Origin: Agromyces sp. G08B096 | GTDB lineage: Bacteria > Actinomycetota > Actinomycetes > Actinomycetales > Microbacteriaceae | Direction: 5' to 3' | NCBI RefSeq assembly: GCF_040267705.1 | Contig: NZ_CP158374.1 | Location: 3,100,001-3,164,000 of the forward strand | DNA length: 64,000 nt | Shown: positions 5,594-21,704 of the stretch, piece by piece | Numbering within the stretch: the stretch's first letter is position 1 | Layout of the letters: each line of letters opens with the position of its first letter | Notes under the pieces: model-generated | Seen by the model: the letters and a program-made list of their open reading frames with translations, nothing else | What the model was told of the DNA's origin: nothing | The model's database searches: none | Position numbers and translations under genes: made by a program

Positions 5594-5628
5594 CGGCCCG
5601 GCGGCGCCCGGCCCGGCGGCGCCCGGCC
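5594..5628. repeat. 15-bp tandem repeat CGGCCCGGCGGCGCC
   Basis: Two exact copies (5594-5608, 5609-5623) plus a 5-base partial copy follow the PucR-type stop. The unit is self-complementary enough to fold, so it may act as a GC-rich terminator for the upstream gene. Confidence 0.55.
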
Positions 5629-5679
5629 TACCGCGCCGGCGGAGCTCCGCCGTACCCTGGAGACGAGGGGAAAGGGGAG

Positions 5680-5874
5680 ATGATGCACGCGGTCATCGGG
5701 GATCGTCTGGTCATCCACGGCAAGCAGGTCGGGCAGTCCGACCGTCACGGGGAGGTGCTCGAGGTACGGGGTCCCGACGGCGGCCCGCCGTATCTCGTGC
5801 GGTTCGACGACGGGCACGAGACGCTGTTCTTCCCAGGTGCCGACTGCGAGGTCGAGCACACGCCGGGCGCCTGA
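5680..5874 (+). CDS. DUF1918 domain protein
   Basis: 64-residue SH3-like small protein of the DUF1918 family: GDRLVIHG near the start, LEVRGPDGGPPYLVRF in the middle and a terminal acidic EVEH segment. Function unknown; common in actinobacteria. Two in-frame ATG codons abut (5680 and 5683) after AAAGGGGAG, so the true start may be three bases later. A TACCCT -10 lies at 5653-5658, giving a short leader. Stands alone between the regulator and the SGNH gene. Confidence 0.8.
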   Translation: MMHAVIGDRLVIHGKQVGQSDRHGEVLEVRGPDGGPPYLVRFDDGHETLFFPGADCEVEHTPGA

Positions 5875-5895
5875 TCGCGCGCTAGCGTGGAGCGC

Positions 5896-6654: not shown

Positions 6655-6712
6655 GCGCCCGAGCCGGCGACCCCGCCCCGCGGGAGGCGAGCGCCCGAGG
6701 CAGGCGAGCGCC

Positions 6713-7204
6713 CTACGCGAGCACGTCCGCGACGAAGGCCCGGGTGCGGCGCGCGAGCCCCTCGATGCGCTCGAGCTCGCGGACGCCCGGCAGCATCTCC
6801 GAGGGCGCCGCCGGACGGCCGAGGCGCACGGTCTCCTGGCAGGCCAGGTCGCTGCAGATGTAGGTGCCGACGCTGTCGCCGCGCTCGCCGGCGACGCCCG
6901 CGCGGCGTGCGGAGAACAGCACGACCTGGTCGCCGGGCTGCTGGGTGTGGCAGAGGCTGCAGATGGCGGCGCGGTGGTGCGACCCGGAGTGCTCGGCGGC
7001 GCGCAGCACGACGCCGGCGGGTTCCCCGTCGAGCTCGGTGACGAGATAGCCGCGCGACGGGATGCGCGGGTCGCGCCAGCCGAACGCGTCGAGCGGGGCC
7101 CACTCGGTCACGAAGAAGCGCACGGGCAGCGAGACCTGGTCGAGCTCGGCCTCGCTCGCGTTGCGCAGCACCGAGCGGATGTCGCTCTCGACCAGCGCCT
7201 GCAT
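6713..7204 (-). CDS. FBP-domain (FusB-like zinc finger) protein
   Basis: 163-residue protein resembling the C-terminal treble-clef domain of elongation-factor-G-binding FusB/FBP proteins. The four-Cys site is visible as CSLCH near residue 83 and CSDLAC near 118. Family members bind EF-G on stalled ribosomes; whether this one does is inferred. ATG 7204 is preceded by an AGAGGGGA ribosome site and a TACACT -10 (7232-7227), so the leader is short. Convergent with the SGNH gene. Full length for the actinobacterial form. Confidence 0.8.
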   Translation of the reverse strand: MQALVESDIRSVLRNASEAELDQVSLPVRFFVTEWAPLDAFGWRDPRIPSRGYLVTELDGEPAGVVLRAAEHSGSHHRAAICSLCHTQQPGDQVVLFSARRAGVAGERGDSVGTYICSDLACQETVRLGRPAAPSEMLPGVRELERIEGLARRTRAFVADVLA

Positions 7205-7286
7205 GCGTCCCCTCTCCGCCCCGTCCAGTGTAGGCACGGTGATCGGATGCCCCGCCCGGAGCCGCACGCCCTCGGGGAACGAGGAG

Positions 7287-8237
7287 CTACCGGTCGGCCG
7301 ACGCCGCCCCCGCGTCCGTCCCGCCGCCGCCGGCCGTCGCCGGCCGGCCGACGCCCGTGGGCACGGGCTCGCCCTCGTTGCCTGCGACCCTCCGCCCGCG
7401 GATGAGGAACCCGAACCCGAGCGCGACGAAGAACATGAGCACCCCGTACACCGCCGCAGGCAGGCTCATCTCGACGCTGCCGATGACGGTCTGGGCGATC
7501 ACGATCGCGAGGGTGGCGTTGTGGATGCCGATCTCGAACGAGCTCGCGATCGACTGGCGGCGATCGACCCGGAAGAGCCGGGGCACGAGGTAGCCGACGG
7601 CGAGGCTGATGACGCAGAACAGCACGGTGATGCCGGCGAGCCGGCCCGCGTTCGCGACCAGCAGGTCGAGGTTGGAGACGATGGCGCCCGCGATGACGAC
7701 GACGAGGATCACCACGGACGCGATGCGCACCGGCCGGTCCATCCGCTCGGCGAAGCCGGGCCGCCACCAGCGCACGAGCATGCCGAGCACGACGGGCAGC
7801 AACACGATCGCGAAGACCTCAACGGTCTTCGCGAGCTGCAGCCCGAGCTCCTCGTCGCCCGGCAGGAACACCTGGATCGCGAGGTTCGTGATGAGCGGCA
7901 GGGTCACGACGGCGAGCACGGAGTTGATCGCGGTGAGGGAGATGTTCAGCGCCACGTCGCCGCGGAAGAGGTGGCTGTAGAGGTTCGCCGTGGTGCCGCC
8001 TGGCGAGGCGGCGAGGAGCAGCATGCCGACGGCGAGCACGGGTGGCAGCTGGAACAGCAGGACGAGGCCGAAGCAGATCGCGGGCAGCAGGAGGAGCTGG
8101 CAGGCGAGGGCGACGACGACGGCCTTGGGATGCCTCGCCACCCGGGCGAAGTCGCCCGGCGTGAGCGTCAGGCCGAGGCCGAACATGATGATGCCGAGGG
8201 CGACGGGCAATCCGATGGTGGTCAACGCTGATCCCAT
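7287..8237 (-). CDS. Bile acid:sodium symporter (BASS) family transporter
   Basis: 316-residue integral membrane protein with nine or ten hydrophobic segments spread over residues 5-300. Family hallmarks are the ASPGGTTANLYSHLFRGD stretch (around 78-95) and IGIHNATLAIVIA late in the protein. Such carriers move organic anions (bile acids, pantoate, keto acids) with sodium; the substrate here is unknown. It lies downstream of the aminotransferase gene on the same strand but has its own leaderless promoter: CACACT at 8249-8244, 6 nt before the ATG. Confidence 0.88.
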   Translation of the reverse strand: MGSALTTIGLPVALGIIMFGLGLTLTPGDFARVARHPKAVVVALACQLLLLPAICFGLVLLFQLPPVLAVGMLLLAASPGGTTANLYSHLFRGDVALNISLTAINSVLAVVTLPLITNLAIQVFLPGDEELGLQLAKTVEVFAIVLLPVVLGMLVRWWRPGFAERMDRPVRIASVVILVVVIAGAIVSNLDLLVANAGRLAGITVLFCVISLAVGYLVPRLFRVDRRQSIASSFEIGIHNATLAIVIAQTVIGSVEMSLPAAVYGVLMFFVALGFGFLIRGRRVAGNEGEPVPTGVGRPATAGGGGTDAGAASADR

Positions 8238-8309
8238 GCGACCAGTGTGGCCGAGGCCGGGCTGGAGCGGGAGAGCCGATTCCGCGCGAGGGCGCGCGGA
8301 TCCAGCGCG

Positions 8310-9620
8310 TCAGCGCGCGAGGAGCGAGGGCCGCGGCCGGTCGTCGACGATCGGCTTCCACCCGTCGGCGCTGCGGTGGTAGACGGCGCCGAAACCGCCA
8401 GCGACGACCGTCTCGAGCGCGTCCGCGAAGCGGTCGACGTCGGCGGACGTCGAGCCGATGCCGAGGCTCGCGCGCAGGCCGTTCGACCTCGTCGCGACGC
8501 GGTCGAAGAACGGGTGCGCACAGAAGCGGCCCGCGCGCACCGAGATGCCGTGCTCGGCGGACAGCGCCGCGGCCACCAGCCCCACCGACCCGCGCTCGAG
8601 TTCGAGCGTGACGATGCCGACGCGGGCGGGGGCATCCGTGAAGCCGCGCACGATGCGGACGCCATCGACGGCGGCGACGCGGCGTTCCAGTCGCGTCGCG
8701 AGCGCGTGCTCGTGCTCGATCCGGGCCGATGGGCCGAGCGCATCGAGCTCTCGGAGCGCGACGGCGAGCGCGGCGATGCCGAGGACGTTCGGCGTGCCCG
8801 CCTCGTGCCGCTCGGGCGAGGCGTGCCAGATCACGCGGTCGAGGCCCACGCGTGCGACGGCGCCGCCGCCCGCGAGGTACGGCGGCGCCTGGTCGAGCCA
8901 GTCGGCCCGGCCGACGAGGGCTCCCGCCCCGTAGGGGGCGTACGCCTTGTGGCCCGAACACGCGAGGTAGTCGACGCCGTCGGCGGCGAGGTCGACGACT
9001 CGGTGCGGCAGCAGCTGCGCCGCGTCGACGACGATCCGGGCGCCGTGCTCGTGCGCGAGGTCTGCGAGCCGGGCGATGGGCAGCAGTTCGCCGGTGACGT
9101 TCGAGGCGCCGGTCACGGCGAGGAGCGCGGCTGGCCGGCGGGCGAGCTCGGCGCCGAGCGCCGCGATGGTCTCCTCGATGCTGGGGGCTCCGACCACGAC
9201 GCGGCGGCTCCGCCACGGCAGCAGGTTGGCGTGGTGCTCGATGTCGAGGACGACGACGTCGCCCGGCACGGCGGAGGCGAGCAGGTTCAGCGCGTCGGTC
9301 GTGTTCCTGGTGAAGACCACGACGTCGCCGTCGCGCGCGCCGACGTGGCGGGCGACGGCACCGCGGGCGTCCTCGACGAGCTCGGTCACGAGTTCGCTGG
9401 GGTAGCCCGTGCCGCGGTGCACGCTGGAGTACCAGGGCAGCAGATCGGCGACGGCCCGCGCCACGACCGCGAGCGGCGGGGCGGATGCCGCGAGGTCGAG
9501 GTTCGTGTGCGGCACGCGTCGTCCGCCGAGCACGGGCACCTCGAGGCCCGCGTCGGCGAGCAGCGCGAGCGGGGGCACGGTGCGCGACTCGGCGCGCGGT
9601 GCGGCGACGGCGATGCTCAC
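8310..9620 (-). CDS. Class V aminotransferase, SufS/cysteine desulfurase-like
   Basis: 436-residue PLP enzyme. Seen: cofactor contacts in VVDAAQLLPH (D179, Q182), the Schiff-base Lys in CSGHKAYAP (K205), and a SufS-like RAGRFCAHP loop whose Cys (C347) is the persulfide-forming residue in cysteine desulfurases. It could therefore release sulfur from cysteine or a related thiol. It also resembles isopenicillin-epimerase-like relatives, so the reaction is not certain. GTG 9620 follows a GGGGGAG site. Its promoter closely matches that of the transporter operon, which ties it to the downstream organosulfur-type cassette. No suf partner genes are nearby. Confidence 0.83.
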   Translation of the reverse strand: MSIAVAAPRAESRTVPPLALLADAGLEVPVLGGRRVPHTNLDLAASAPPLAVVARAVADLLPWYSSVHRGTGYPSELVTELVEDARGAVARHVGARDGDVVVFTRNTTDALNLLASAVPGDVVVLDIEHHANLLPWRSRRVVVGAPSIEETIAALGAELARRPAALLAVTGASNVTGELLPIARLADLAHEHGARIVVDAAQLLPHRVVDLAADGVDYLACSGHKAYAPYGAGALVGRADWLDQAPPYLAGGGAVARVGLDRVIWHASPERHEAGTPNVLGIAALAVALRELDALGPSARIEHEHALATRLERRVAAVDGVRIVRGFTDAPARVGIVTLELERGSVGLVAAALSAEHGISVRAGRFCAHPFFDRVATRSNGLRASLGIGSTSADVDRFADALETVVAGGFGAVYHRSADGWKPIVDDRPRPSLLAR

Positions 9621-9668
9621 GGCTCCCCCGATCCTGCGGGGCGCGCCGGTCGGCGCGCGGTCTGGTCG

Positions 9669-9697
9669 AGGGTACGGATGCCCCGTCACGCCCTCAA
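9669..9697 (-). promoter_or_regulatory. Promoter of the class V aminotransferase gene
   Basis: -35 TTGAGG (9697-9692), 17-bp spacer, -10 TACCCT (9674-9669), then TCGA. The spacer end GGCATCCG and the flanks match the promoter at 17410-17439. Confidence 0.6.
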
Positions 9698-9764
9698 GGG
9701 TCCGCCGACGCGGGCCGTCACGGCGCGCAACACGGCGCAACGTGCGGACGCCCGGGCGAGTGGA

Positions 9765-9790
9765 GGCCGGACCGGGTCCGCGGTCCGGCC
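9765..9790 (-). terminator. Hairpin terminator of the transporter/monooxygenase operon
   Basis: GGCCGGACC (9765-9773) pairs with GGTCCGGCC (9782-9790) around an 8-nt loop, starting 17 bases past the stop of the last operon gene. No T-tract, as usual at this GC content. Confidence 0.6.
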
Positions 9791-9806
9791 CCCGCCGGGT
9801 CGCCGG

Positions 9807-10472
9807 TCAGCGCCCCGGCTCGTCGGCCCGTGGCTCGTCGGCCCGCGGCTCGTCGGGTTCGCCGAGCGAGAGCATGAGGCGGTTCGCCCAGTTGAAGAAC
9901 GCCGCCGAGTGGATGACGTCGGCGACGGCCTGCTCGTCGTATCCCGCAGCCCGCAGCGCGTCGAGGTGGCGCCGCTCGAGCCGGGGCGGCGTGGCGGCGA
10001 GCGCGGCCGACGCGTCGATCACGGCGCGCCACGCGGCATCCTGCTGCGCGTCGACGCCGTCGTCGAGGAGGCGCTGCACGTCGCCGGGCCGCTTCGAGTA
10101 GTGCCCGGCGAAGCGCGCGTGCACCGAGGCGCAGAACACGCAGCCGTTGACCCGGCTCGTCGCGGCGGCGGCGAGCTCGCGGTCGGCCCTGGGCAGCCCG
10201 TCGGCGGCGTTGGTGAAGATGTCCTTGTCGGCGAGCGTGCGGGCGCGCAGGATGTCGGGATCGCGCACGAGGAGGCGGAAGTAGTCGCTCTTCGCGCGGG
10301 CCCGGTCGACGAGCCCCGCCCACTGTCGTTCGGTCAGCTGCTCGGCGTCGGCCGGCTCGAGCCAGGGCAGCCAGCCGAGTTCGGCGGCCGTGAAGGCGGC
10401 GGGCGTGGATGCCTCGGGGCGGAGGATGACCGCGACATCGGGCTCCGCCACGCGGTCGGCGGTGTCGGTCAT
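9807..10472 (-). CDS. Alkylhydroperoxidase domain protein (Avi_7169-like)
   Basis: 221-residue AhpD/CMD-fold protein with the redox motif CVFCASVHARFAGH near residues 114-127 (CxxC plus His), so peroxidase or thiol-relay chemistry is likely. From memory it matches the Avi_7169-type peroxidase subfamily that travels with the CMD protein encoded next to it. ATG 10472 overlaps the stop of the upstream CMD gene (ATGA). The C-terminus carries a DEPRA-type repeat from a 15-bp DNA tandem repeat, which is probably dispensable. It is the last gene of the operon, before a hairpin. Confidence 0.82.
   Translation of the reverse strand: MTDTADRVAEPDVAVILRPEASTPAAFTAAELGWLPWLEPADAEQLTERQWAGLVDRARAKSDYFRLLVRDPDILRARTLADKDIFTNAADGLPRADRELAAAATSRVNGCVFCASVHARFAGHYSKRPGDVQRLLDDGVDAQQDAAWRAVIDASAALAATPPRLERRHLDALRAAGYDEQAVADVIHSAAFFNWANRLMLSLGEPDEPRADEPRADEPGR
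9817..9861. repeat. Three copies of a 15-bp repeat in the peroxidase 3' end
   Basis: GGCTCGTCGGCCCG-type units start at 9817, 9832 and 9847 and encode the repeated DEPRA tail. In-frame unit length means copy-number change would not break the gene. Confidence 0.7.
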
Positions 10473-11047
10473 GCGGCCTCCTCGGTGAGCAGGCGCAGCC
10501 CGGCGGCGACGCGCAATTGGTACGCGAGGAACGCGACGAGCTGCGACAGGGTGACGATGCCGTCGGCGGACCACCCGGCGGCCGCGAGCCGCTCGAGGGC
10601 CGCGGGCGACGCCTCCCGGGGCCGGAAGACGAGCAGGTGGGCGTGCTCGAGGGCGGCGGCCGAGCGGTCGCCCACGGCCGCGCGAAGCGCATCGGATGCC
10701 TCGAAGCCGAGCCCGTCGCGCGACTCGGCGGCGAGGCCCGGCTCGCGGTACGCGCCGTAGGGCCCGGTGGTGCGGGCCGCCTCGGCGGCGAGCCGCGCCG
10801 CGTCGGCGAGGTCGCCCGCGAGTCCGGCGTAGAGCTCGGTCGCGGCCTCGTCGTCGTGCAGCGCGGCGACGAACGTCGCGACCAGGCCGCGCTCCGCACG
10901 GGTCGTGTGGGTCTCGTCGATGTCCGCGCCGAACAGGGCGTCGTGGCTGGCCTGCGACTGGTCGCGGGTCACGGGCCGGTGACGCCGGAGCGCGTCGACG
11001 CGGTCGCCGGGCGCGACGCCCGCGAGCCGATCGATGGTGTCGGTCAT
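10469..11047 (-). CDS. CMD domain protein (Avi_7170-like)
   Basis: 192-residue carboxymuconolactone-decarboxylase-fold protein without the CxxC pair of its neighbour, so probably a structural or binding partner rather than a peroxidase. It begins MTDTIDRLAGV, and its C-terminal LSQLVAFLAYQLRVAAG helix is typical of the fold. ATG 11047 has AGAGAGGA upstream. It sits 43 nt after the monooxygenase gene with a small GC-rich hairpin in the gap, and overlaps the next gene by 4 nt. The pairing of this family with an Avi_7169-type peroxidase is recalled, not searched. Confidence 0.75.
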   Translation of the reverse strand: MTDTIDRLAGVAPGDRVDALRRHRPVTRDQSQASHDALFGADIDETHTTRAERGLVATFVAALHDDEAATELYAGLAGDLADAARLAAEAARTTGPYGAYREPGLAAESRDGLGFEASDALRAAVGDRSAAALEHAHLLVFRPREASPAALERLAAAGWSADGIVTLSQLVAFLAYQLRVAAGLRLLTEEAA

Positions 11048-11090
11048 GTGGTCCTCTCTCGTTGCCGGGCGGGCCGGGCGGCCCGGACGT

Positions 11091-12160
11091 TCATTCGGTC
11101 GCGAGCGCGGTCGCGGTGGCGGCGGCGGCCGCAGTGACGCTCCTCGCGCCCGCCCCGACGGCTCGCCGGGCGCCGGCGCCCCAGCCGAGCGCCGGGGCGA
11201 CCTCGGTCGCGATGAGCTCGATCGAGCGCAGCACGAGCTCGTGCGGCGGGTCGACCGAGTGCACCTGGAAGGCGACGTCGGTGGCCTCGGCCGCGACGGA
11301 GTCGCGCGCGAGCGACTCGACCACCTCGTCGACGGTGCCGACGTGGGTGTCGTACGACGCGATGAGCTCGTCGAGGCTCTCGCCGACCGGCGGTTGCCCG
11401 GTGCGCGCGAAGCCTGCGGCTGCGCGGCGCAACCCGAGCTCGGCGCAGCGACGGGCCTCGTCGCGCGAGTCGGCGACGAACAGCGTCCGGGAGGCGAGGA
11501 TGCGCGGAGGCACGCCGTCCGGCAGCGACTCCCGGTACGCGTCGACGATCGGCAGCTGGAGCTCGGAGAGGGTCCGGCGCGGGGCATCCGCCGGTCTCGG
11601 CTGGGTGCGGGAGAGCAGCAGACCGTGCCCCGCCCGGCCGGCGCGCGTGCCGCCGAACGCGGAGAAGGTCGCCTGCCAGAGGTGGCCGAGCAGTCCGCGC
11701 CCGTCGGGGTGCAGCCGGTTGCGGTCGTCGCCGAGCGCGCCGCCGGCGAGGGCCGCGACGAGCGCGTCGACCTTCTCGCCGAACACCCGGGCGCGGTCCT
11801 CGTGCTGCTGCCCGAAGGCGAGGAACGACGCGGGCGTCGAGCCGGAGCCGACGCCGAGCTCGATCCGCCCGCCCGAGAGCAGGTCGGCGACCACCGCATC
11901 CTCGGCGACCCGGACGGGGTCTTCGAGAGGCAGGGTCACGACCGCGGTCCCGAGCCGGATCCGGCTCGTCGCGGCCGCCGCGTGCGCGAGGAACACGAAC
12001 GGCGACGGCAGGCCGCCCTCGGCCGCGTGGAAGTGGTGCTGCGCGACCCACGCCGAGTCGAAGCCGTGGCGTTCGGCCGCGACGATCTGCTCGGTCGCGA
12101 TGCGGTACCGCTCCGCGGGCGTGGTGTCGTCGAGAAGCCTGGTGAAGAATCCGATGCGGG

Positions 12161-12164
<4 letters not shown>
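11091..12164 (-). CDS. Luciferase-like FMN-dependent monooxygenase (KPN_01858-like)
   Basis: 357-residue TIM-barrel flavin monooxygenase of the bacterial luciferase superfamily, acting with FMNH2 and O2. Seen: the N-terminal IGFFTRL strand, WVAQHHFHAAEGGLPSP (43-59), the flavin/phosphate segment TSRIRLGTAVVTLPLEDP and LSGGRIELGVGSG. It resembles the KPN_01858 subfamily known to co-occur with peptide-type ABC transporters and CMD proteins. No dedicated FMN reductase is in this operon. The start overlaps the ABC ATPase stop (ATGA). Substrate unknown; sulfur or nitrogen compounds are typical of related enzymes. Confidence 0.82.
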
Positions 12165-13809
<1,645 letters not shown>

Positions 13810-13813
<4 letters not shown>

Positions 13814-14760
13814 GAGGTCCTCCCGGCGGCGTGGCTGAGACGGTTGGCGGCGAGGACGACGGCCACCACCACGAGCCCGGGCAGCACGGTCAGCCACCAC
13901 GACGTCGCGACGTAGTTGCGCCCCTCGGAGATGAGCAGGCCCCATTCGGGCGTCGGCGGCGGGGCGCCGTAGCCGAGGAAGCCGAGCGTGGAGATGGCGA
14001 GGATCGCCGAGCCGAACTGCAGCGCGGCGAGGCCGACGACGGCGGTGAGCGAATTGGGCAGGACGTGCCGGAACAGCACGGCGGGCAGCCGCGCCCCCGA
14101 TCCGATCGCGGCCTCGACGTAGTCGGCCTGGCGCACGCGCACGACCTCCGATCTCGCGAGCCTCGTGAACGCGGCGATCGAGCCGATGCCGACCGCGATG
14201 GCGGCGTTCACGGTGCCGAAGCCCAGCAGGATGATGATGCTGAGCGAGAGCAGCAGGCCCGGCACCGACAGCAGCACGTCGACGATCCGGCCGACCACGG
14301 CGTCGACGGCCCCGCCGAGCGACCCCGCGGCGACACCGAGCAGTGTGCCGCCGACGAGCCCGACGGTCACCGCGACGAACGCACCCGAGAGCGAGTGGAC
14401 GGCGCCGTGCACGACCCTCGCGTACAGGTCGCGGCCGATGGCGTCGGTGCCGAACAGGTGCGCGAGGCTCGGCGCCTGCAGCTTCTCGGCCGGCACACCG
14501 GAGATCGGATCGGCGGCCGTGAAGAGCCACGGCACGAGGGCCCACGCCACCGCGATCGCGACCACGAGCCAGGCGAGCACGAGACCCGGGCGGATGCCGC
14601 GCACCCGGCCGACCCCCCGCACCCGGCGGCCGGACCGCGACGGCCGGCTCGCGGCTTCCGCGGGCGCATCGACCGCCGCGACCCCGCCCGTGACGACCCC
14701 GCCCGTGACGTCGACCGCCGGGGCCGGGGCATCCGTTCGCTGCTGGACCGGCGCGCTCAT
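13810..14760 (-). CDS. Peptide-type ABC transporter permease, DppC/OppC-like
   Basis: 316-residue permease with a long Ala/Pro/Val-rich N-terminal tail (about 50 residues), then six predicted membrane segments. The GTDAIGRDLYARVVHGA segment and the cytoplasmic EAAIGSGARLPAVLFRHVLPN loop that docks the ATPase are typical of DppC. ATG 14760 overlaps the stop of the DppB gene. Works as a heterodimer with that protein for import of a small peptide-like or organic substrate. Confidence 0.92.
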
Positions 14761-15695
14761 GCGGCCACCGCCTTCCGCTTCAGCCTCGGATCGAGGACGG
14801 GATACACGAGGTCGACCGCGAGGTTCACCACGACGAACACGAGCGTCGACAGGATGACGATCGCCTGCAGCACCGCGACATCCTGATTGGCCACCGCCTG
14901 CTCGGTGAGCCGGCCGATGCCGGCCCGTCCGAACACCGTCTCGGTGACCACGGCGCCGCCGATGAGCTCGCCGATCAGCACGCCGGCGATGGTGATCGCC
15001 GGCAGCATCGCGTTCCGGGCGACGTTGCGCCACAGCACCCAGGCCCCGCTCGCGCCCTTCGCCCGCACGACCGCGACGAACGGCGACAGCTGCACCTCGT
15101 CGATCGAGCGGGCGAGCACCTGCGCGAGGGGCGCTGAGATCGGCACCGCGAGCGTCAGCACCGGCAGGATGAGCCCCTGCACGGGGTCGGCGCCGATCAC
15201 CGGCACGAGCCGCAGCTGGAACGAGAACACCTGGATGAGCACGATGCCGAGCCAGAACACCGGCACCGACACGAACACGCCGGGCAGGGCCCGGAGCCCC
15301 CGCCGCAGCCATCCGAACGGCGCGAGCGTCGACAGGAACGCGATGCCCACGGCGAGCACGACCGCCACGAGGAAGCCGAGGCCCGCGAGGGCGAGCGTGT
15401 CGGGCAGCGCCGAGCCGATCAGCTCGTGCACGGGCGTGCCGTACTGCACCGAGGTGCCGAAGTCGCCCTGCAGGAACCCGGCCAGGGTGTGCCCGAACTG
15501 CTGCCACAGCGGCACGTCCGCGCCGTACGCCGCCCGGATGTCGGCGATCTGCTCCGGCGAGAGCCCGAGTTCGGGGCTCTCGAACTTGATCAGGATCGCA
15601 TCGCCGGGCAGGGCCTGCAGCAGCACGAACGTCGCCGTGAACGCGACCGCGAGCACGATGAGGGCCTGCCCGGTGCGACGGAGGAGGTACGGCAC
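14757..15695 (-). CDS. Peptide-type ABC transporter permease, DppB/OppB-like
   Basis: 312-residue inner-membrane permease with six predicted transmembrane segments and the DppB-type VVRAKGASGAWVLWRNVARN docking loop followed by GxxIGELIGGAVVTETVF. The start is taken as GTG 15695, 11 nt after the binding-protein stop, because AGGAG overlaps that stop codon at the right distance and the next in-frame residues lead straight into the first helix. Confidence 0.9.
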   Translation of the reverse strand: MPYLLRRTGQALIVLAVAFTATFVLLQALPGDAILIKFESPELGLSPEQIADIRAAYGADVPLWQQFGHTLAGFLQGDFGTSVQYGTPVHELIGSALPDTLALAGLGFLVAVVLAVGIAFLSTLAPFGWLRRGLRALPGVFVSVPVFWLGIVLIQVFSFQLRLVPVIGADPVQGLILPVLTLAVPISAPLAQVLARSIDEVQLSPFVAVVRAKGASGAWVLWRNVARNAMLPAITIAGVLIGELIGGAVVTETVFGRAGIGRLTEQAVANQDVAVLQAIVILSTLVFVVVNLAVDLVYPVLDPRLKRKAVAA

Positions 15696-15706
15696 GGTTC
15701 CGGCTC

Positions 15707-17344
15707 CTACCGCTCGTCGAGCCAGGTGTCGTAGAACTGCGGGCGGGCGACGGCCTCGGTCGTGAAGCCGTGCACGTACGGCGCCGCGCCGTAGACCTGC
15801 GGCTCCTCGAACAGCGGGATGACGTAGGCCTGCTCGGTGAGGTAGTCCTGCACGGCGGCCGAGGCGGCGTCGCGCGCGGCCGGGTCGGCCTCGGATGCCA
15901 CGGCCGAGAGCAGCGCGTCGAGCTCGGCGTCGTTCGAGAGCAGCGTGTTGCGGTTCTTCGTGAAGTACTGGCTCTTGATCACGTCGTGGTCGGCGCGGCC
16001 CACCATCGAGTGGTACAGCGGCGTCTTCAGCGGGTCGAGGATGTCCTCGGCGTAGCTGCCGGAGTCGGCGGCCTTCACGTTCAGCTCGACGCCGATCTCC
16101 TTCAGCTGCTGGCTGACGAGCTCGAGGGTCTGCTTCGACAGCGGCTGCGGCTTCGCCTCGTACACGGTGAGCGAGAGGCGCTCGCCGTCGCGCTCGCGGA
16201 TGCCGTCGGCGCCGACGACCCAGCCGGCCTCGTCGAGCAGCTCCTCCGAGAGCTCGGGGTCGTACGCGAGCCCCTCGGACTCGTCGGTGTAGCCCTGCGC
16301 GGTCGAGGCGAGCTGGGACGTCGCGACCGGGTAGTTCTCCGTGAAGATCGTGTCGACGACCTCCTGCGCGTCGACGCCGTGCACGAGCGCCTGACGCACG
16401 CGCAGATCGCTCAGCAGCGGGTTGGTGAACCGCAGGCCGATGGAGTTGTTCACCCCGCGGGTCGGCGCGGCGACGATCTCGAACCCGGCACCCGAGACCT
16501 GCGCCTCGTCGAAGGCCTGCACGTACCGGATGACGTCGGCCTGGCCGGCGAGCAGTGACCCGATGCGCACACTGTCCTCCGGGGTCACGATGACCTCGAT
16601 CGCGTCGAGGTACGCCCGGCCCTGGTGCTCGAACGACTCGGGCGCCCAGTCGTAGTCCTCGCGCGCCTCGAGCAGCAGGGTGGTGCCGATCTCCTCGTCG
16701 GCCGCGACGAACGGCCCGCTGCCGACGATCTCGGCCGCGTTGCCCGCACCCCAGTCCTCGAGCTTCCGGTCGAGCGTGGCCGGCGAGACGAGCCCCGAGT
16801 TGATCGTCGAAGTGGCCTGCAGGAAGCCCGGCGCCGGCGCCGAGAACCGGAACGTCACGGTGTCGGCGTCGACGACCTCGCTCGAGGCGTAGTTGTTGAT
16901 CGCCTCGGAGATCGTGAGACCCAGGTCGGTGTTGCCGAGCCCGTAGGTGTCGAAGTTCTTCGCGACGGCCGCCGCGTCGAGCGCGCTGCCGTCGGAGAAG
17001 GTGACGTCGTCGCGGAGGTCGAACGTGTACTCGGTGGCATCCGCGTTCACGGTCCAGTCGGTCGCGACCCACGGCTGGATCTCGAGGGTCTCGGGGTCCT
17101 GCCAGGTGAGGCGGGCGGTGAGGTTGTTCACCAGCCCGCCGTTCGGATAGAAGCCCGCCTGCGGCGGGTAGAGCGTGGTGTACGCCTGGTGCTCGAGATA
17201 CGTCAGGGTGCCGCCCTCGACGGGGTCGCCGGAGGCGGAGCCGGCTGAGCTCGCCTGGCCGCTCGCGCACGAGGCGAGCATGGCGGCGGCGGCGAGCGCG
17301 GCGGCGCCCGCGATGACGGTGCGGCGGAGGCGGGTCGTTGGCAT
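15707..17344 (-). CDS. ABC transporter substrate-binding lipoprotein (KPN_01854-like)
   Basis: 545-residue family-5 extracellular solute-binding protein. A lipoprotein signal is clear: RLRR, hydrophobic Ala-rich core and lipobox LASC with the modified Cys at 26. The mature part shows the family pattern of LxxxVTFSDGSALDA and GSGPFVA. It delivers the substrate to the DppBC-like permease. It is the first gene of a seven-gene operon with its own promoter at 17410-17439. Peptides, opines or small sulfur compounds are possible ligands; sequence alone does not decide. Confidence 0.9.
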   Translation of the reverse strand: MPTTRLRRTVIAGAAALAAAAMLASCASGQASSAGSASGDPVEGGTLTYLEHQAYTTLYPPQAGFYPNGGLVNNLTARLTWQDPETLEIQPWVATDWTVNADATEYTFDLRDDVTFSDGSALDAAAVAKNFDTYGLGNTDLGLTISEAINNYASSEVVDADTVTFRFSAPAPGFLQATSTINSGLVSPATLDRKLEDWGAGNAAEIVGSGPFVAADEEIGTTLLLEAREDYDWAPESFEHQGRAYLDAIEVIVTPEDSVRIGSLLAGQADVIRYVQAFDEAQVSGAGFEIVAAPTRGVNNSIGLRFTNPLLSDLRVRQALVHGVDAQEVVDTIFTENYPVATSQLASTAQGYTDESEGLAYDPELSEELLDEAGWVVGADGIRERDGERLSLTVYEAKPQPLSKQTLELVSQQLKEIGVELNVKAADSGSYAEDILDPLKTPLYHSMVGRADHDVIKSQYFTKNRNTLLSNDAELDALLSAVASEADPAARDAASAAVQDYLTEQAYVIPLFEEPQVYGAAPYVHGFTTEAVARPQFYDTWLDER

Positions 17345-17409
17345 GGGCGGATCGTTCCTTCGGTCGGGATGCTGCGGTCCGGTGGCGCCCGGTCGGGGCG
17401 TGAGCCTCG

Positions 17410-17439
17410 ACGGTACGGATGCCTCGCGCCGGGCCTCAA
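17410..17439 (-). promoter_or_regulatory. Promoter of the ABC transporter/monooxygenase operon
   Basis: -35 TTGAGG (17439-17434), 18-bp spacer ending GGCATCCG, -10 TACCGT (17415-17410) followed by TCGA. It strongly resembles the promoter at 9669-9697. The leader to the binding-protein ATG is about 60 nt. Confidence 0.6.
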
Positions 17440-17562
17440 CCGGGCGCCGTCTCGCGGATTCATCCGCCGACACAGCTCGTCGTGTGGCGTCATCCCGCGT
17501 CGTCTTCGCGAGGTGCGCGCTGCTGCGACGGGCGGTGAGACGCGGGCGCGGAGACACATCCG

Positions 17563-17572
17563 GTCATGTGAC
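17563..17572. promoter_or_regulatory. Palindrome-like GTCATGTGAC upstream of the operon
   Basis: One mismatch from the perfect palindrome GTCATATGAC found at 19090-19099. It lies in the 265-bp gap between the second monooxygenase stop and the binding-protein gene, about 125 bp upstream of the -35. Candidate operator; no regulator gene is adjacent. Confidence 0.35.
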
Positions 17573-17609
17573 GCCGTGCGGCGGGACGGCGCGGGTCGGT
17601 GGTCGAGCG

Positions 17610-19010
17610 TCAGCGGCCGAGCGTCAGCGCGGCGTCGGCGGCTAGGTGCACGTTGGCCGGCCGCTCGAGCCCGAGGTGTTCGCGGAGCGTCGAGCCCTCG
17701 TACTCCGTCGGGAACACGCCGAGGCGCTGCAGCTCGGGCACCACGCCGAGCGCGAAGGCCTCGAACTGCGCGGGCTGCACGGCCGAGAGCACGTTGAAGC
17801 CGTCGACCGCTTCCGCGTCGGCCCACGCAGCGAACTCGGCGGCGATCTGCTGCGCCGTGCCCACGATCATCGAGGCGTGCACCGTCGCGGTGACCAGCAG
17901 ATGCCTGAGCGTGGGCGGCGCCTCGCCGCCGACCCGGCGGCCGGTGCGCTCTCCGGCGATCTCGGCCAGCTCCTGACCGAGCTGGGAGAAGCCCGCCGCG
18001 AGCTGCGGCGTCACGACCGTGTCGGGACCGAGCCCGTCGAGGGCCACGCCGACGAGCGTCGACAGGTGGGCGATCGAGCGCTGCTCGGGGAAGACGTCGG
18101 GCGGACCGCCGGCGAAGTCCTCGGCGACCGGCACGAGCACCGTCAGCTCGTCGGCGATGGCCTGCGCGTGCTCCCTCGTCTCGCCGACGATCGGCAGCAC
18201 CGGGGCAATGACCTTGAGCGTGCGGTCGTCACGGCCCGACTCGAAGGCGAGCGAGCGCAGCTCCTCGCGGAGCGCCGCGGCCTGATGGATGTCGGACACC
18301 GCGACGAGCGCGAGGTCCGCGCTCCGCGCCGCGAACAAGCGCGACCGCGGCGACGTGCCGGCGTGCACGAGGGGCAGGTGCCCTTGCACGGGCCGGGCCA
18401 CGTTGAGCGGCCCGGTGACGCTGAGCTGGGCGCCGTGGAAGTCGGTCGCGTGCAGCTTCGACGGGTCGAGGTACACGCCGGCCTCGGCGTCGGCGACGAT
18501 GGCGTCGTCCTCGAAGGAGTCCCAGAGCCGCCGGAGCACCGTCTCGAACTCGTCGGCGCGGTCGTAGCGGGTCTCGTTCGTGGCGTGGGCGTCGCGCCCG
18601 TGGTTGCCCGCGGCGCGCGGTTCGGCCCCCGTCACGAGGTTCAGGCCGGCCCGGCCGCCGGAGAGCAGGTCGATGGAGGCGGTGGCCCGGGCGAGTGTGT
18701 ACGGGTCGGAGTAGCTCGTGTTCGCGGTCGCGATGAGCCCGATGCGGCTCGTCAGCGCCGCCAGGTAGGTGACCGCGGAGAGCGGGTCGATCCGGGCGAC
18801 GAGGTACGGGTCGCGGTACTCGAGGTCGTGGCCGGTGGCGAGCCAGTCGCCGAAGAACAGGTAGTCGAGCCTCGCCCGCTCGGCGACCTCGGCCGTGCGG
18901 CGCAGTACGGCGGCGTCGCCGCGGGGGTCGCGATGCGCGCCCGGGTAGCGCCACCCCGACGGGTACGCGCCCACCGTGCGGACCATCGCGCCGATGATGA
19001 GTCGAGACAT
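17610..19010 (-). CDS. NtaA/SnaA/DszA-family FMN-dependent monooxygenase
   Basis: 466-residue large-type flavin monooxygenase using FMNH2 from a separate reductase. Seen: GAYPSGWRYPGA (15-26), the FFGDWLA strand, TANTSYSDPYTLARATAS and SGGRAGLNLVTGAEPRAAGNHG, all family hallmarks. Relatives oxidise nitrilotriacetate, dibenzothiophene sulfone, dimethyl sulfide or S-alkyl-cysteine derivatives, so a C-S or C-N cleaving role is likely. ATG 19010 has GGAGGTGG upstream and a TAGCGT -10 further up. Next gene on the same strand is the transporter operon, 265 bp away with its own promoter. Confidence 0.85.
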   Translation of the reverse strand: MSRLIIGAMVRTVGAYPSGWRYPGAHRDPRGDAAVLRRTAEVAERARLDYLFFGDWLATGHDLEYRDPYLVARIDPLSAVTYLAALTSRIGLIATANTSYSDPYTLARATASIDLLSGGRAGLNLVTGAEPRAAGNHGRDAHATNETRYDRADEFETVLRRLWDSFEDDAIVADAEAGVYLDPSKLHATDFHGAQLSVTGPLNVARPVQGHLPLVHAGTSPRSRLFAARSADLALVAVSDIHQAAALREELRSLAFESGRDDRTLKVIAPVLPIVGETREHAQAIADELTVLVPVAEDFAGGPPDVFPEQRSIAHLSTLVGVALDGLGPDTVVTPQLAAGFSQLGQELAEIAGERTGRRVGGEAPPTLRHLLVTATVHASMIVGTAQQIAAEFAAWADAEAVDGFNVLSAVQPAQFEAFALGVVPELQRLGVFPTEYEGSTLREHLGLERPANVHLAADAALTLGR

Positions 19011-19089
19011 CAGGCACCACCTCCACCGGCGACGCTAGGAGGGCGGGCGGCGGCACGGCGAGCGGGTCCGTCACAGTCGGGAACGCGGG

Positions 19090-19099
19090 GTCATATGAC
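19090..19099. promoter_or_regulatory. Perfect palindrome GTCATATGAC upstream of the NtaA-like gene
   Basis: Ten-base perfect palindrome about 80 bp upstream of the monooxygenase start, flanked by further GTCAC/GTGAC elements (19110-19123). Shares 9 of 10 bases with 17563-17572. The 284-bp region 19016-19299 shows no gene otherwise. Confidence 0.4.
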
Positions 19100-19262
19100 T
19101 TGATCGGCGGTCACACGGCGTCACGCATCGTTCGCGCCGGCAGGTCCGCGGATCGGCGTCACGATCCGGCGTCTCGAGCATCTCTCAAGTGAGGCGGTGT
19201 GGATGCATCCCCCGAAATGCCCGCGTCGCCTGTCGCCCCGATGGTCCCCACGGCCGGGCGAC

Positions 19263-19291
19263 GGCCCCCGGGCGTGAGCCGCCCGGGGGCC
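19263..19291 (-). terminator. Hairpin terminator after the Pro/Glu-rich membrane protein gene
   Basis: GGCCCCCGGGCG (19263-19274), 5-nt loop, CGCCCGGGGGCC (19280-19291): a perfect 12-bp stem starting 8 nt past the stop at 19300. Confidence 0.75.
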
Positions 19292-19299
19292 CTCCGCGT

Positions 19300-19815
19300 T
19301 CAGCGGCCGGGCTTGTCGGGCCGCTTGGTGTGGCCGGGCGGCACGTCGGGCTCGGGCTCGGGCTGCGGGTCGGGCTCCGCCGTGGGCTCCGGCTCGGGCT
19401 CGGCGACCGGTACTTCCGGCTCGGGCACCGGTTCGGTGTCGACGGGCGGCGCCTCGGTGCCGGGCGCGGGCGACGGCAGGATCGGCGCATACGACGCCGG
19501 CGGCGAGGTGATCGCCGCCGGCGTCCTCGGCCGGTCGCGCGGCTCCGCGACCGGCGCTCCGGACGGCAGCGACTGCAGCAGAGCGATCGTCGCGCCGAAG
19601 GCGATGAGCATCGCGAGCGCGGTGCCCGTGATGAACGCGCCGAGCCGGTGGGTGCGCACGATCCGGGTGAGCACGACGACCGGGCGCGACTCGAGTACGC
19701 CGCGCAGCCCGCGGAGCACGACGGCCGAAGCTGCGGCGCGGAGCGCTTCGGCCCGCCCCCGAGGCGCGACATCGGAGGCGCGGACGCGCGGACGGCGCAT
19801 CGGCTCCTCGGTCAT
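19300..19815 (-). CDS. Hypothetical single-pass membrane protein with Pro/Glu-rich tail
   Basis: 171 residues. A basic N-terminal cytoplasmic part (about 1-57) is followed by one membrane segment (about 60-80, LGAFITGTALAMLIAFGATI) and an outer tail of Pro/Glu/Pro/Asp repeats (PEPE, PTAEPDPQPEPEP) ending in basic residues. No catalytic motif seen and I do not recognise the family. The tail resembles cell-wall-spanning spacers. GGAGAGCC precedes ATG 19815. Divergent from the GIY-YIG-like gene. The DNA encoding the tail is repetitive and may vary in length. Confidence 0.65.
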   Translation of the reverse strand: MTEEPMRRPRVRASDVAPRGRAEALRAAASAVVLRGLRGVLESRPVVVLTRIVRTHRLGAFITGTALAMLIAFGATIALLQSLPSGAPVAEPRDRPRTPAAITSPPASYAPILPSPAPGTEAPPVDTEPVPEPEVPVAEPEPEPTAEPDPQPEPEPDVPPGHTKRPDKPGR

Positions 19816-19907
19816 GGGGCTCTCCGGGTCGGCGGGTCATGGGCGGCGGCCCGATCGGCCACGCATCGAGGATATGCAACGTCGGCGGTGCGCCGTAGCC
19901 TGCGGGC

Positions 19908-20471
19908 GTGATCATCCGCTGCGGCATCCGTTCGGCCGACGGCACGGCGTGCGCCGAACCGGCTGAATCCGGTGCGCCGCTGCCGCTCTGCACGACACAT
20001 CTGCTCGCCGCCCATGACTGGGTCGAGCGGAGCGTCGGCACCGCCGACCTCCTGCCCGCCCCGTGCACCGCGTGCGGGCACCCCGTGGGCCGGCGGTATC
20101 CCGCAGGGCTCGTCTGCGAGCGCTGCGACTGGCGCGTGGGCGACGTGCCAGACCTCGAGCTCGGCTCGCCGGCGATCGACGTCGTCTACTACGTGCGCTG
20201 GCGCGACCGGGTGAAGATCGGCACGAGCGCGAGTCCGAGGCGCCGCCTCGCGGCGCTGCCCGTCGAGGAGGTGCTGGCGTTCGAGCGCGGCGACCGGCTC
20301 GTCGAACGCCGCCGCCACGAGCAGTTCGCCGCCCACCGCCACCCGGGCACCGAGTGGTTCGCGATCCACGACGAGCTGCTCGCGCACATCGCCGAGCTCC
20401 GCGCCGGCGTCGACGATCCCTGGGCGCTCGTCGACCGGTGGACGGCGCACGCCCTCGCCGCCAGGGCCTAG
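19908..20471 (+). CDS. GIY-YIG-like (T5orf172/MUG113-type) protein with zinc-ribbon N-terminus
   Basis: 187 residues. The C-terminal part (about 90-150) has the nuclease-superfamily pattern VVYYVRW, VKIGTSASPRRRLAAL and a later HEQFAAHR helix, as in T5orf172/MUG113 domains. The N-terminal half holds CTAC (53-56) and CERC (70-73), a four-Cys zinc ribbon, plus C5, C15, C28 and H31, which could bind another metal. It may act on DNA or RNA, but no catalytic role is proven for this branch. The GTG start is leaderless: TAGCCT at 19896-19901, 6 nt upstream. Followed 33 nt later by a LigD-type polymerase gene with its own promoter. Confidence 0.72.
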   Translation: MIIRCGIRSADGTACAEPAESGAPLPLCTTHLLAAHDWVERSVGTADLLPAPCTACGHPVGRRYPAGLVCERCDWRVGDVPDLELGSPAIDVVYYVRWRDRVKIGTSASPRRRLAALPVEEVLAFERGDRLVERRRHEQFAAHRHPGTEWFAIHDELLAHIAELRAGVDDPWALVDRWTAHALAARA

Positions 20472-20504
20472 CCGCCCGCCCGGCCCGGGCATAGGGTGGG
20501 CCGG

Positions 20505-21704
20505 GTGAGCGCGACGGAGTCCGCCGAGGTGCTGGAGATCGATGGCCGCGAGGTGCGCGTGAGCCACCCCGACAAGGTCGTCTTCCCCGAACCCGGCCTC
20601 ACGAAACTCGATCTGATCAGGTACTACCTCGCGGTGGCCGACGGGGCGCTCCGCGGTGCGGCCGGACGGCCGATGGTGCTGAAACGGTTCGTGAAGGGGA
20701 TCGACCGCGAGGCGTTCTTCCAGAAGCGGGCGCCGGAGAAGCGGCCCGACTGGATCGACACCGCCACGCTGCACTATGCGCGCGGCACGTCCGCCGAAGA
20801 GGTCGTCGTGCGCGACGCCGCCGCCCTCGCCTGGGTGGTGAACCTCGGCTGCATCGACCTTAACCCGCACCCGGTGCGCGCCGAAGACCTCGACCATCCC
20901 GATGAGCTGCGCGTCGACCTCGACCCGATGCCGGGCGTCGAGTGGAGCCAGCTCGTCGACGTCGCGTTCGTCGCGCGCGACGTGCTCGCCGAGCACGGGC
21001 TCGTCGCGTGGCCGAAGACGTCGGGGTCACGGGGCATCCATCTGCTCGTGCGCATCGAACCGCGCTGGGACTATCGCGACGTGCGCCTCGCCGCCGAGAC
21101 GCTCGCCCGCGAGGTCGCGCGCCGCGAACCGGGGCTCGCGACCGCGCGCTGGTGGAAGGAGGAGCGCGGCGAACGCGTCTTCGTCGACTTCAACCAGAAC
21201 GCGAAGGACCGCACGGTCGCCTCGGCCTACTCGGTGCGGCCGCGGCCCGACGCCCGCGTGTCGACGCCGCTCGACTGGGACGAGCTGCGGCTGCGCCGGC
21301 CCGAGGAGTTCACCGTCTCGACCGTGCTCGAGCGCTTCGCGGAGCGCGGCGACCCGATGGCGGGCATCGACGACGCCGTCGGCGTGCTCGACGGCCTGCT
21401 CGGGCTCGCGGCCGAGCTCGGCCCCGTCGAACGCGACGCCGACGCCGAGCCGCTGCCCGTCATCGAGATCGCCCGAGCTGAGACGAAGGAGGAGGCGCTC
21501 GACGGCCTCGAGCGCTGGAAGGCCCGCCACGCGAAGGTCGTCGGCCACCTGCACCCCGCCGACGTGCTCGTCGACGGCATGCGCGGCTCGAGCTCGCTCT
21601 GGTACCGCATCCGGGTGAACCTCCAGCACGTGCCCGAGGATGAGCGGCCAGAGCAGGAGCCCCTCGAGGTCGACTACGACCCGTGGAAGGACCGCCGGCC
21701 CTGA
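20505..21704 (+). CDS. LigD-type polymerase (primase-polymerase) domain protein, stand-alone
   Basis: 399-residue archaeo-eukaryotic primase-family polymerase, equal to the polymerase module of LigD. Seen: metal-binding DLDP (138-141), the nucleotide-binding KTSGSRGIHLLV (161-172) and DFNQNAKDRTVASAYSVR (218-235) with the third acidic residue. Family members fill gaps in end joining. There is no ligase or nuclease domain and no Ku gene in the window. The start is GTG 20505 because TAGGGT (20492-20497) lies 7 nt upstream; the in-frame GTG at 20496 sits inside that -10. Confidence 0.88.
   Translation: MSATESAEVLEIDGREVRVSHPDKVVFPEPGLTKLDLIRYYLAVADGALRGAAGRPMVLKRFVKGIDREAFFQKRAPEKRPDWIDTATLHYARGTSAEEVVVRDAAALAWVVNLGCIDLNPHPVRAEDLDHPDELRVDLDPMPGVEWSQLVDVAFVARDVLAEHGLVAWPKTSGSRGIHLLVRIEPRWDYRDVRLAAETLAREVARREPGLATARWWKEERGERVFVDFNQNAKDRTVASAYSVRPRPDARVSTPLDWDELRLRRPEEFTVSTVLERFAERGDPMAGIDDAVGVLDGLLGLAAELGPVERDADAEPLPVIEIARAETKEEALDGLERWKARHAKVVGHLHPADVLVDGMRGSSSLWYRIRVNLQHVPEDERPEQEPLEVDYDPWKDRRP

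What the first reader, a model, noticed from the sequence alone, without database searches (positions are those of the whole stretch)
8310..19010. Candidate organosulfur scavenging cassette: ABC importer, two flavin monooxygenases, two CMD/peroxidase proteins and a SufS-like enzyme
Seven tightly overlapping genes (15 to 9.8 kb on the minus strand) join a peptide-type importer, a KPN_01858-like luciferase-family monooxygenase, a CMD protein and a CxxC alkylhydroperoxidase. An NtaA/DszA-type monooxygenase lies just upstream and a SufS-like PLP enzyme with C347 just downstream. Seen: gene order, ATGA overlaps, lipobox and catalytic motifs. Known: these CMD, peroxidase, monooxygenase and binding-protein families co-occur, with no settled substrate. 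Inferred: uptake and oxidative C-S cleavage, sulfur passing to the desulfurase.
Basis: partly seen in the sequence, partly recalled or inferred. Interest (0 to 1): 0.75.

Follow-up and report, generated by a model that had tools for sequence, protein, structure and literature searches.

The report
Sulfur-scavenging gene cassette in Agromyces
A soil bacterium carries a block of nine genes, four of them from families of unknown function, that appear to share a DNA control signal with its sulfate-using genes, so they probably harvest sulfur from some organic compound that is still unknown.

Summary
On the minus strand of an Agromyces genome lie an NtaA/DmoA-family monooxygenase, a seven-gene cassette (binding protein, two permeases, fused ATPase, luciferase-like monooxygenase, cysteine-free CMD protein, CxxC peroxidase) and a SufS-like enzyme. 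Four cassette proteins pass the cut-offs of TIGR04027-04030, families without known function.

The sulfur reading gains independent support. A motif learned from 42 cassette and monooxygenase promoters recurs, untrained, before the sulfite reductase operon in 7 of 7 cassette genomes that have one, and before SufS-like, thiosulfate-transporter-like and rhodanese genes. Retrained without Agromyces, it marks 16 of 19 Agromyces SufS-like promoters against 12 of 216 other genes.

Two corrections. The SufS-like gene is not part of the widespread cassette: it adjoined 1 of 40 family cassettes, from the same genus. In Agromyces it usually follows the NtaA-like gene, and in some species the cassette sits between the two. 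Also, 34 of 41 cassette genomes show neither CysH nor sulfite reductase, so the product is more likely thiol or sulfide than sulfite.

Substrate and C-S cleavage remain unproven. A Klebsiella family member was reported to attack poly(acrylic acid), very slowly.

The parts
17610..19010 (-). NtaA/DmoA-family FMN-dependent monooxygenase, 466 aa; closest solved structures YtnJ/MoxC, then DszA
   Evidence: TIGR03860 374.6 bits, cut-off 279.7; phmmer 1yw1 2.9e-66, 5tlc 2.6e-61
15707..17344 (-). ABC importer substrate-binding lipoprotein, KPN_01854 family, 545 aa, family-5 (nickel/opine/peptide) type
   Evidence: TIGR04028 785.7 bits, cut-off 468.5; closest solved chain NikA 4oer 4.1e-31
14757..15695 (-). 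ABC permease 1
   Evidence: PF00528
13810..14760 (-). ABC permease 2
   Evidence: PF00528
12161..13813 (-). fused double ATPase of the importer
   Evidence: PF00005, two stretches
11091..12164 (-). luciferase-like FMN monooxygenase, KPN_01858 family
   Evidence: TIGR04027 515.3 bits, cut-off 412.9; solved relative 8k74 1.2e-112
10469..11047 (-). CMD-domain protein (Avi_7170 family) without the CxxC site
   Evidence: TIGR04029 166.1 bits, cut-off 100.75; CxxC in 1 of 74 homologous stretches
9807..10472 (-). AhpD-like peroxidase (Avi_7169 family) with CxxCxxxH
   Evidence: TIGR04030 260.5 bits, cut-off 233.15; CxxCxxxH in 73 of 74 homologous stretches
8310..9620 (-). SufS-like PLP enzyme with catalytic Cys, Lys and His
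   Evidence: TIGR01979 256.6 bits, below cut-off 475.1; catalytic residues 26 of 26; top PDB matches are cysteine desulfurases, best 8kg1 1.9e-59
19070..19095 (.). predicted sulfur-regulon site before the NtaA-like gene; second weaker site at 19100-19125
   Evidence: motif scores 18.3 and 9.7; rank 1 of 220 promoters with a motif trained without Agromyces
17469..17494 (.). weaker site before the SBP gene; another at 17553-17578
   Evidence: motif scores 9.6 and 9.3; rank 9 of 220
9717..9742 (.). site before the SufS-like gene, in the 186-base gap after the peroxidase gene
   Evidence: 13.6, not used in training; rank 5 of 220

Best explanation
The genes form a sulfur-scavenging unit switched on, with the sulfate-assimilation operon, by a shared sulfur-limitation regulator. 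The ABC importer brings in a small organosulfur compound. One or both FMN monooxygenases, fed with FMNH2 by an MsuE-type reductase encoded elsewhere (G000:2885509), oxidise it next to sulfur and release a sulfenate, thiol or sulfide. The CxxC AhpD-like protein, with its cysteine-free CMD partner, reduces the sulfenate or the peroxide by-product. The sulfur enters cysteine or methionine; the SufS-like enzyme, probably with SufE, takes sulfur from cysteine or a related product when sulfur is scarce. Shown here: the families, gene order, shared motif and sulfur-gene neighbours in relatives. Inferred: that the motif is a regulator site, the substrate class, C-S cleavage, and the role of each enzyme.
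For: Motif learned from 42 promoters of cassettes, Liv-type importers and NtaA-like genes; 47 hits above 11 in 810,565 bases, 38 before those genes. Untrained hits: sulfite reductase operon in 7 of 7 genomes (12.7-19.3; 11.7-18.6 with the motif retrained without Agromyces); SufS-like 16 of 19 loci against 12 of 216 other genes; TsuA-like genes in two genomes, one rhodanese gene with two sites, metF. Own-genome pattern: 19 hits against 2 for the reversed pattern; two lie before Sir-CysH-CysD-CysN. MsuE-type reductase beside the NtaA-like gene in other Agromyces. MetE/MetF beside 6 of 40 cassettes, in two genera. Closest solved NtaA relative is YtnJ. 34 of 41 cassette genomes lack CysH and the same 34 lack a full Sir match. 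Motif also before NtaA-like and SBP genes in two Paenarthrobacter.
Against: No substrate or expression data exist here for this genome. The SBP sites in the window are weak (9.6, 9.3). Motif hits also fall where sulfur has no obvious role: a tkt/ctaB intergenic site (rank 2-3 of 220 promoters), an MFS gene, and 14 of 19 pattern hits inside called genes. Three of 19 SufS-like promoters score below 9 and one of 20 loci could not be scored. Before the SBP no hit above 9 was seen in Glaciibacter, Nonomuraea jabiensis or Arthrobacter 35W. The Klebsiella family member is reported to attack sulfur-free poly(acrylic acid). The LLM is absent from 8 of 40 loci and the importer is replaced in 10, so neither is indispensable. 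In the wide survey only 10 of 64 loci over 15 kb have an NtaA-like gene nearby (4 of them Agromyces) and 5 an MsuE (no control loci). CysH absence is common in the family (32 of 299 have it), with no link to the cassette (p 0.17).
Confidence: 0.75

Rival explanations
1. The cassette degrades a sulfur-free carboxylate (poly(acrylic acid) or a similar compound); its promoter motif and neighbours are incidental.
For: The closest solved relative of the LLM, 8k74 (PCX02514 of Klebsiella sp. PCX), was reported to shorten poly(acrylic acid) with NADPH.
Against: kcat 0.00214 per s; added FAD, FMN or FMNH2 could not drive it although it belongs to the flavin family; only poly(acrylic acid) is reported in the sections read. 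The motif is shared with sulfate assimilation genes.
Confidence: 0.07
2. It is a sulfonate system like Ssu/Msu/Tau: the monooxygenases release sulfite, which Sir reduces.
For: MsuE reductases occur nearby in relatives; G000 has Sir and CysH under the same motif; TauA-, TauB- and TauC-like genes adjoin the cassette in Sinirhodobacter and a tauA operon lies near it in Allorhizobium.
Against: The NtaA-like protein scores 53.5 bits against the SsuD cut-off of 518.2; 34 of 41 cassette genomes have neither CysH over cut-off nor a full Sir match, so sulfite would be a dead end there unless another sulfite reductase was missed.
Confidence: 0.15
3. The CMD and peroxidase proteins defend against peroxides during sulfur starvation, and the monooxygenases are side activities.
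For: CxxCxxxH in 73 of 74 peroxidase homologues; the CMD-peroxidase pair is kept where LLM or importer is lost; PMC12581299 says in its abstract (search listing only) that sulfur starvation induces antioxidant defences.
Against: An SBP of this family (50% identity or more) accompanies them in 51 of 64 wide-survey loci (these loci were picked by their LLM), which a pure defence system would not need. Neighbouring catalase or OxyR genes were not searched for.
Confidence: 0.08
4. The importer takes up a nickel or metallophore complex and the oxygenases modify it.
For: The closest solved binding proteins are NikA/CntA types.
Against: These belong to a broad family that also binds peptides and other ligands; 10 of 40 loci use a Liv-type importer instead; the intergenic own-genome motif hits include sulfate genes and none that I recognised as a metal gene.
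Confidence: 0.04

Closest known systems
NCBIfam set TIGR04027/04028/04029/04030 (KPN_01858, KPN_01854, Avi_7170, Avi_7169 families)
   Same: All four models pass their cut-offs; the gene order equals that in Allorhizobium and Roseateles, and that in Klebsiella except that CMD and peroxidase appear as one gene there.
   Different: In Agromyces it lies between an NtaA-like and a SufS-like gene with a sulfur-regulon-like motif; NCBI lists the four as hypothetical equivalogs, without function.
B. subtilis YtnJ/CmoJ S-alkylcysteine salvage
   Same: YtnJ is the closest solved relative of the NtaA-like protein; CmoJ cleaves a sulfoxide C-S bond to a sulfenic acid (PMC10863075, passages).
   Different: No acetyltransferase or deacetylase among the ten genes 19010-7287; the SufS-like partner is not part of that pathway as described in the passages. 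That YtnJ and CmoJ are the same protein is recalled.
Ssu/Msu sulfonate utilisation
   Same: FMN-dependent luciferase-fold monooxygenases with an MsuE-type reductase, apparently under sulfur control.
   Different: SsuD cut-off not met; most cassette genomes show no sulfite reductase.
SufS/CsdA cysteine desulfurases
   Same: Catalytic Cys, PLP Lys and His kept in 26 of 26.
   Different: Below the SufS cut-off; not in the SUF operon of this genome; carries the sulfur motif.

Membership tests
TIGR04027-04030 cassette | All four curated cut-offs passed | tested here: met
   515.3/412.9, 785.7/468.5, 166.1/100.75, 260.5/233.15 bits
TIGR04027-04030 cassette | Order SBP-permeases-ATPase-LLM-CMD-peroxidase | tested here: met
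   Same order in Allorhizobium and Roseateles, with CMD and peroxidase as one gene in Erwinia, Pantoea and Klebsiella; all of SBP, P1, P2, ATPase at 50% or more plus CMD and peroxidase in 49 of 64 survey loci
TIGR04027-04030 cassette | SufS-like gene as a member | tested here: not met
   Adjacent in 1 of 40 family cassettes; SufS-like match in 5 of 64 wide-survey loci, four of them Agromyces, the fifth 31% identical
NtaA/DmoA monooxygenase TIGR03860 | Curated cut-off | tested here: met
   374.6 against 279.7
SsuD/MsuD sulfonate monooxygenase | Curated cut-off TIGR03565 | tested here: not met
   NtaA-like protein 53.5 against 518.2
SufS TIGR01979 | Curated cut-off | tested here: not met
   256.6 against 475.1
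SufS TIGR01979 | Catalytic Cys, PLP Lys, His | tested here: met
   26 of 26 loci
SufS TIGR01979 | Acceptor SufE or SufU in the genome | tested here: met
   SufE over cut-off at G000:1564784, without the motif; no NifU_N match
CmoJ-type S-alkylcysteine salvage | Acetyltransferase and deacetylase genes in the cluster | tested here: not met
   None among the families found for the ten genes 19010-7287; not sought genome-wide
CmoJ-type S-alkylcysteine salvage | C-S cleavage of a cysteine sulfoxide | not testable with these tools
   Needs an enzyme assay
Sulfur-limitation regulon | Motif shared with sulfate assimilation promoters | tested here: met
   7 of 7 Sir promoters, not used in training
Sulfur-limitation regulon | Expression rises under sulfur limitation | not testable with these tools
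   No expression data for this genome

The most novel reading that the evidence does not exclude
It has a constant CMD-peroxidase core and exchangeable oxygenase and importer modules. In two families of Actinobacteria it answers to a sulfur-limitation regulator, not yet identified, that reads GTnAC blocks spaced 10 bp apart.
Probability: 0.45. Interest if true: 0.75.

Novelty: new variant of a known kind. Interest (0 to 1): 0.62.

Why it matters
Four protein families that NCBI keeps as hypothetical equivalogs, seen here in Alpha-, Beta- and Gammaproteobacteria and Actinobacteria, get a physiological placement that can be tested directly. If true, many soil and plant bacteria, including species without recognisable sulfate or sulfite reduction, would own a further way to draw sulfur from organic matter. 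The motif also gives a handle on sulfur regulation in Microbacteriaceae and Micrococcaceae.

Tried and rejected
Riboswitch control: no Rfam match in window 5000-24000, and only RNase P in 7 of the 40 family loci searched.

Anti-correlation of the cassette with sulfate assimilation: rejected. CysH over cut-off in 7 of 41 cassette genomes and 32 of 299 family genomes; Fisher p 0.17.

SufS-like gene as the housekeeping desulfurase: unlikely. The gene matches at 62% identity or more over nearly its full length in 50 of 60 genus genomes, own genome included, and one more has a fragment, so nine lack a recognisable copy. No SufS-type match lies near the SufB gene (the other SUF genes read by eye), and other desulfurase-like genes lie in what look like a nad operon and a place beside mnmA (names by eye).

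A first simple GC3 gene caller chose antisense frames and was replaced by a codon model trained on the window; it still merges or misplaces some genes (for example L185, L195).

Neighbour counts in named genomes have no control loci, and TauB/TauC-like rows there include generic transporter parts; I give them little weight. Phylogenetic relatedness was not corrected in the motif tests. The stretches L126-L141 scored had been chosen by pattern hits, so ranks there are biased in favour of Sir; the window's own promoters were not pre-chosen. A structure prediction of the binding protein was considered and not run.

Literature: (six family or gene names) found one paper; brought no functional study of the set that I recognised from listings and passages; PMC11354265 (found, also listed) studies one enzyme of it. 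Only open-access papers are covered.
Full report
WHAT IS THERE. The window is positions 3100001-3164000 of a single 3.59 Mb contig. Named relatives with 82-89% identical LLM are Agromyces species, and the A. ramosus contig of L202 has the same length as that of G333, a genome listed as same genus as the window's; so the host is an Agromyces, family Microbacteriaceae. Four cassette proteins pass the curated cut-offs of TIGR04028, 04027, 04029 and 04030; the upstream monooxygenase passes TIGR03860; the SufS-like protein does not reach the SufS cut-off.

THE CASSETTE AS A KNOWN SET. TIGR04029 is over its cut-off in 41 of 299 genomes of the same family, own genome included. I fetched 20 kb or less around the 40 others and called genes with a codon model trained on the window. 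The constant part is CMD plus peroxidase. The LLM is missing in 8 of 40 loci, where CMD and peroxidase are fused in 7 and a divergent protein of one cluster (its representative is PF13454, FAD/NAD(P)-binding) lies next to the SBP in all 8. In 10 of 40 the peptide-type importer is replaced by a branched-chain-amino-acid-type importer. Some loci are cut by contig ends (L057, L070, L073, L085, L087). Of these 64, 61 match CMD and peroxidase, 51 have an SBP of 50% identity or more, and 49 have the whole set.

THE SUFS-LIKE AND NTAA-LIKE GENES. The SufS-like gene adjoins the cassette in 1 of 40 family loci, the one from the same genus (L076). In the genus it matches at 62% identity or more, nearly full length, in 50 of 60 genomes. 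I read 20 of these loci: the NtaA-like gene lies directly before it in 12, and in three more (G301, G328, G333) the whole cassette stands between NtaA-like and SufS-like genes in the window's order. With the window and L076 (two further short gene calls before the SufS-like gene) that makes five genomes; A. bauzanensis and A. albus contigs show the same order. Four of the 20 have no NtaA-like gene before it, and one (L185) was not resolved by the gene caller. In G299 (82% identical SufS-like protein) neither the NtaA-like gene nor the cassette is present and the flanking genes of the window stand on both sides, an empty-site counterpart. In A. lapidis (L204) the LLM stands between NtaA-like and SufS-like genes but no SBP, CMD or peroxidase matched. 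So the NtaA-like/SufS-like pair is a frequent genus feature and the cassette an insertion into it or a loss from it. An MsuE-type FMN reductase (TIGR03566 over cut-off) lies before the NtaA-like gene in L076 and L196 and after the peroxidase in L093; the orthologue in this genome is at 2885509, also over cut-off, with a site of score 10.6 before it.

THE PROMOTER MOTIF. Expectation maximisation on upstream regions of 42 SBP, Liv-type binding protein and NtaA-like genes, from 35 family loci and the window, gave tGTGACGccgcGTtaCncnctGTgAC, that is GTnAC blocks 10 bp apart. Scanning 810,565 bases (40 loci plus the window) gave 47 hits above 11. By my count of that list, 38 lie before training-type genes (or the divergent FAD gene), 2 before SufS-like genes, and 7 elsewhere: a rhodanese gene (two sites), TsuA-like sulfur transporter genes (two genomes of one genus), metF with a divergent AHSA1 gene, an MFS gene and one importer gene (families). 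The SufS-like, rhodanese, TsuA-like and metF promoters were not in the training set. In the own genome a simplified pattern with up to 2 mismatches gave 19 hits against 2 for its reversed control. Five of the 19 are intergenic by my gene calls: before the NtaA-like gene, before the SufS-like gene, two 30 bp apart before an operon of a sulfite-reductase-like protein, CysH, CysD, CysN and an SsuA-type binding protein, and one between tkt and ctaB (these two named by eye). The other 14 lie inside called genes, two of them short doubtful ones. The sulfite reductase gene is found in full in 7 of 41 cassette genomes and all 7 have the motif before it (12.7-19.3; of random 300-bp stretches, true sites included, 1.5% reach 11). 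A motif retrained on 38 promoters without Agromyces scores 11.7-18.6 before the same 7, and at least 9 in 16 of 19 Agromyces SufS-like promoters and 9 of 12 NtaA-like promoters, against 12 of 216 other genes in the same loci (Fisher p about 1e-14 for the SufS-like genes, relatedness not corrected). Of those 12, several are genes of MsuE size or genes divergent from NtaA-like ones. With the first motif the site also stands before the NtaA-like and SBP genes of two Paenarthrobacter (Micrococcaceae) and the NtaA-like gene of one Arthrobacter, but no hit above 9 lies before the SBP in that Arthrobacter, in Glaciibacter or in Nonomuraea jabiensis.

OTHER SULFUR CONTEXT. MetE and MetF lie beside 6 of 40 family cassettes, before the SBP in three genomes of genus g50 and after the peroxidase in three of g18. 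MetY-like and PatB-like genes lie in 4 of 40. A CysB-family regulator adjoins the peroxidase gene in Variovorax, and a tauA operon lies near the cassette in Allorhizobium; in other annotated plasmid loci (Paracoccus, Roseateles, Terrarubrum, Erwinia) I recognised no sulfur gene by its annotation. In Klebsiella AqSCr grown with chromate, tau and ssu genes and the alkyl hydroperoxidase BHE81_06815 were all raised, and formate dehydrogenase N carries tags 06840-06850 (PMC8195247, passages); in K. pneumoniae the cassette peroxidase is followed by araJ, a VOC gene, ppk2, two small genes and fdnIHG. From this spacing I infer that BHE81_06815 is the cassette's fused CMD-peroxidase; I could not check the record. 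KPN_01858 is listed in one passage with TauC among proteins changed under iron limitation in Klebsiella (PMC7194016).

MECHANISM. Most cassette genomes (34 of 41; 29 of the 36 at least 90% complete and at most 5% contaminated) have no CysH over cut-off, and the same 34 no full sulfite reductase match. If the cassette feeds sulfur to those cells, its product should be thiol, sulfenate or sulfide rather than sulfite, unless a different sulfite reductase was missed. This agrees with MetY-, MetE- and PatB-type neighbours and with YtnJ as the closest solved relative of the NtaA-like protein; CmoJ releases a sulfenic acid that must be reduced (PMC10863075, passages), a job a CxxC AhpD-like protein could do. 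The peroxidase keeps CxxCxxxH in 73 of 74 homologous stretches and CMD has CxxC in 1 of 74. SufE is present and NifU_N absent in this genome, so a SufS-like/SufE pair is possible; the SufE gene itself has no site. All enzyme steps are inference.

AGAINST. The best solved relative of the LLM is a Klebsiella protein reported to cleave poly(acrylic acid) (PMC11354265; abstract, introduction, sections 2.1 and 2.2). The reported turnover is 0.00214 per s; NADPH alone served and added flavins did not. This does not exclude a sulfur substrate but is direct enzymology for a family member. The closest solved binding proteins are nickel and opine-metal types, which does not point to sulfur. The SBP sites in the window are weak. 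The neighbour survey in named genomes had no control loci.

VERDICT.

Noticed in passing
L062, L065, L067, L068, L069, L071, L080, L088: The 8 of 40 cassettes without the LLM all have a divergent ~740-aa protein (representative PF13454, FAD/NAD(P)-binding) beside the SBP, and CMD and peroxidase are fused in seven of them: a possible replacement oxygenase.
   Followed up: partly
L066, L079, L084-L087, L089-L092: The LLM-CMD-peroxidase core is coupled to a branched-chain-amino-acid-type importer instead of the peptide-type one; its promoters gave hits of the same motif (they were part of the training set).
   Followed up: partly
L134 (G000:1670269): A motif copy (2 mismatches to the pattern) lies midway between divergent genes that look like transketolase and a CtaB-type protein (names by eye); no sulfur role is obvious.
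   Followed up: no
L173 (G299): An Agromyces locus lacking both the NtaA-like gene and the cassette, with conserved flanks on both sides.
   Followed up: partly
L204 (Agromyces lapidis): The LLM alone, without SBP, CMD or peroxidase matches, stands between the NtaA-like and SufS-like genes.
   Followed up: no
20496-21704: A LigD-polymerase-like gene next to the region (recognised by eye, not searched).
   Followed up: no
7287-8237: A BASS-family transporter gene directly after the SufS-like gene and kept near it in several Agromyces; its promoter does not carry the motif (rank 208 of 220).
   Followed up: partly
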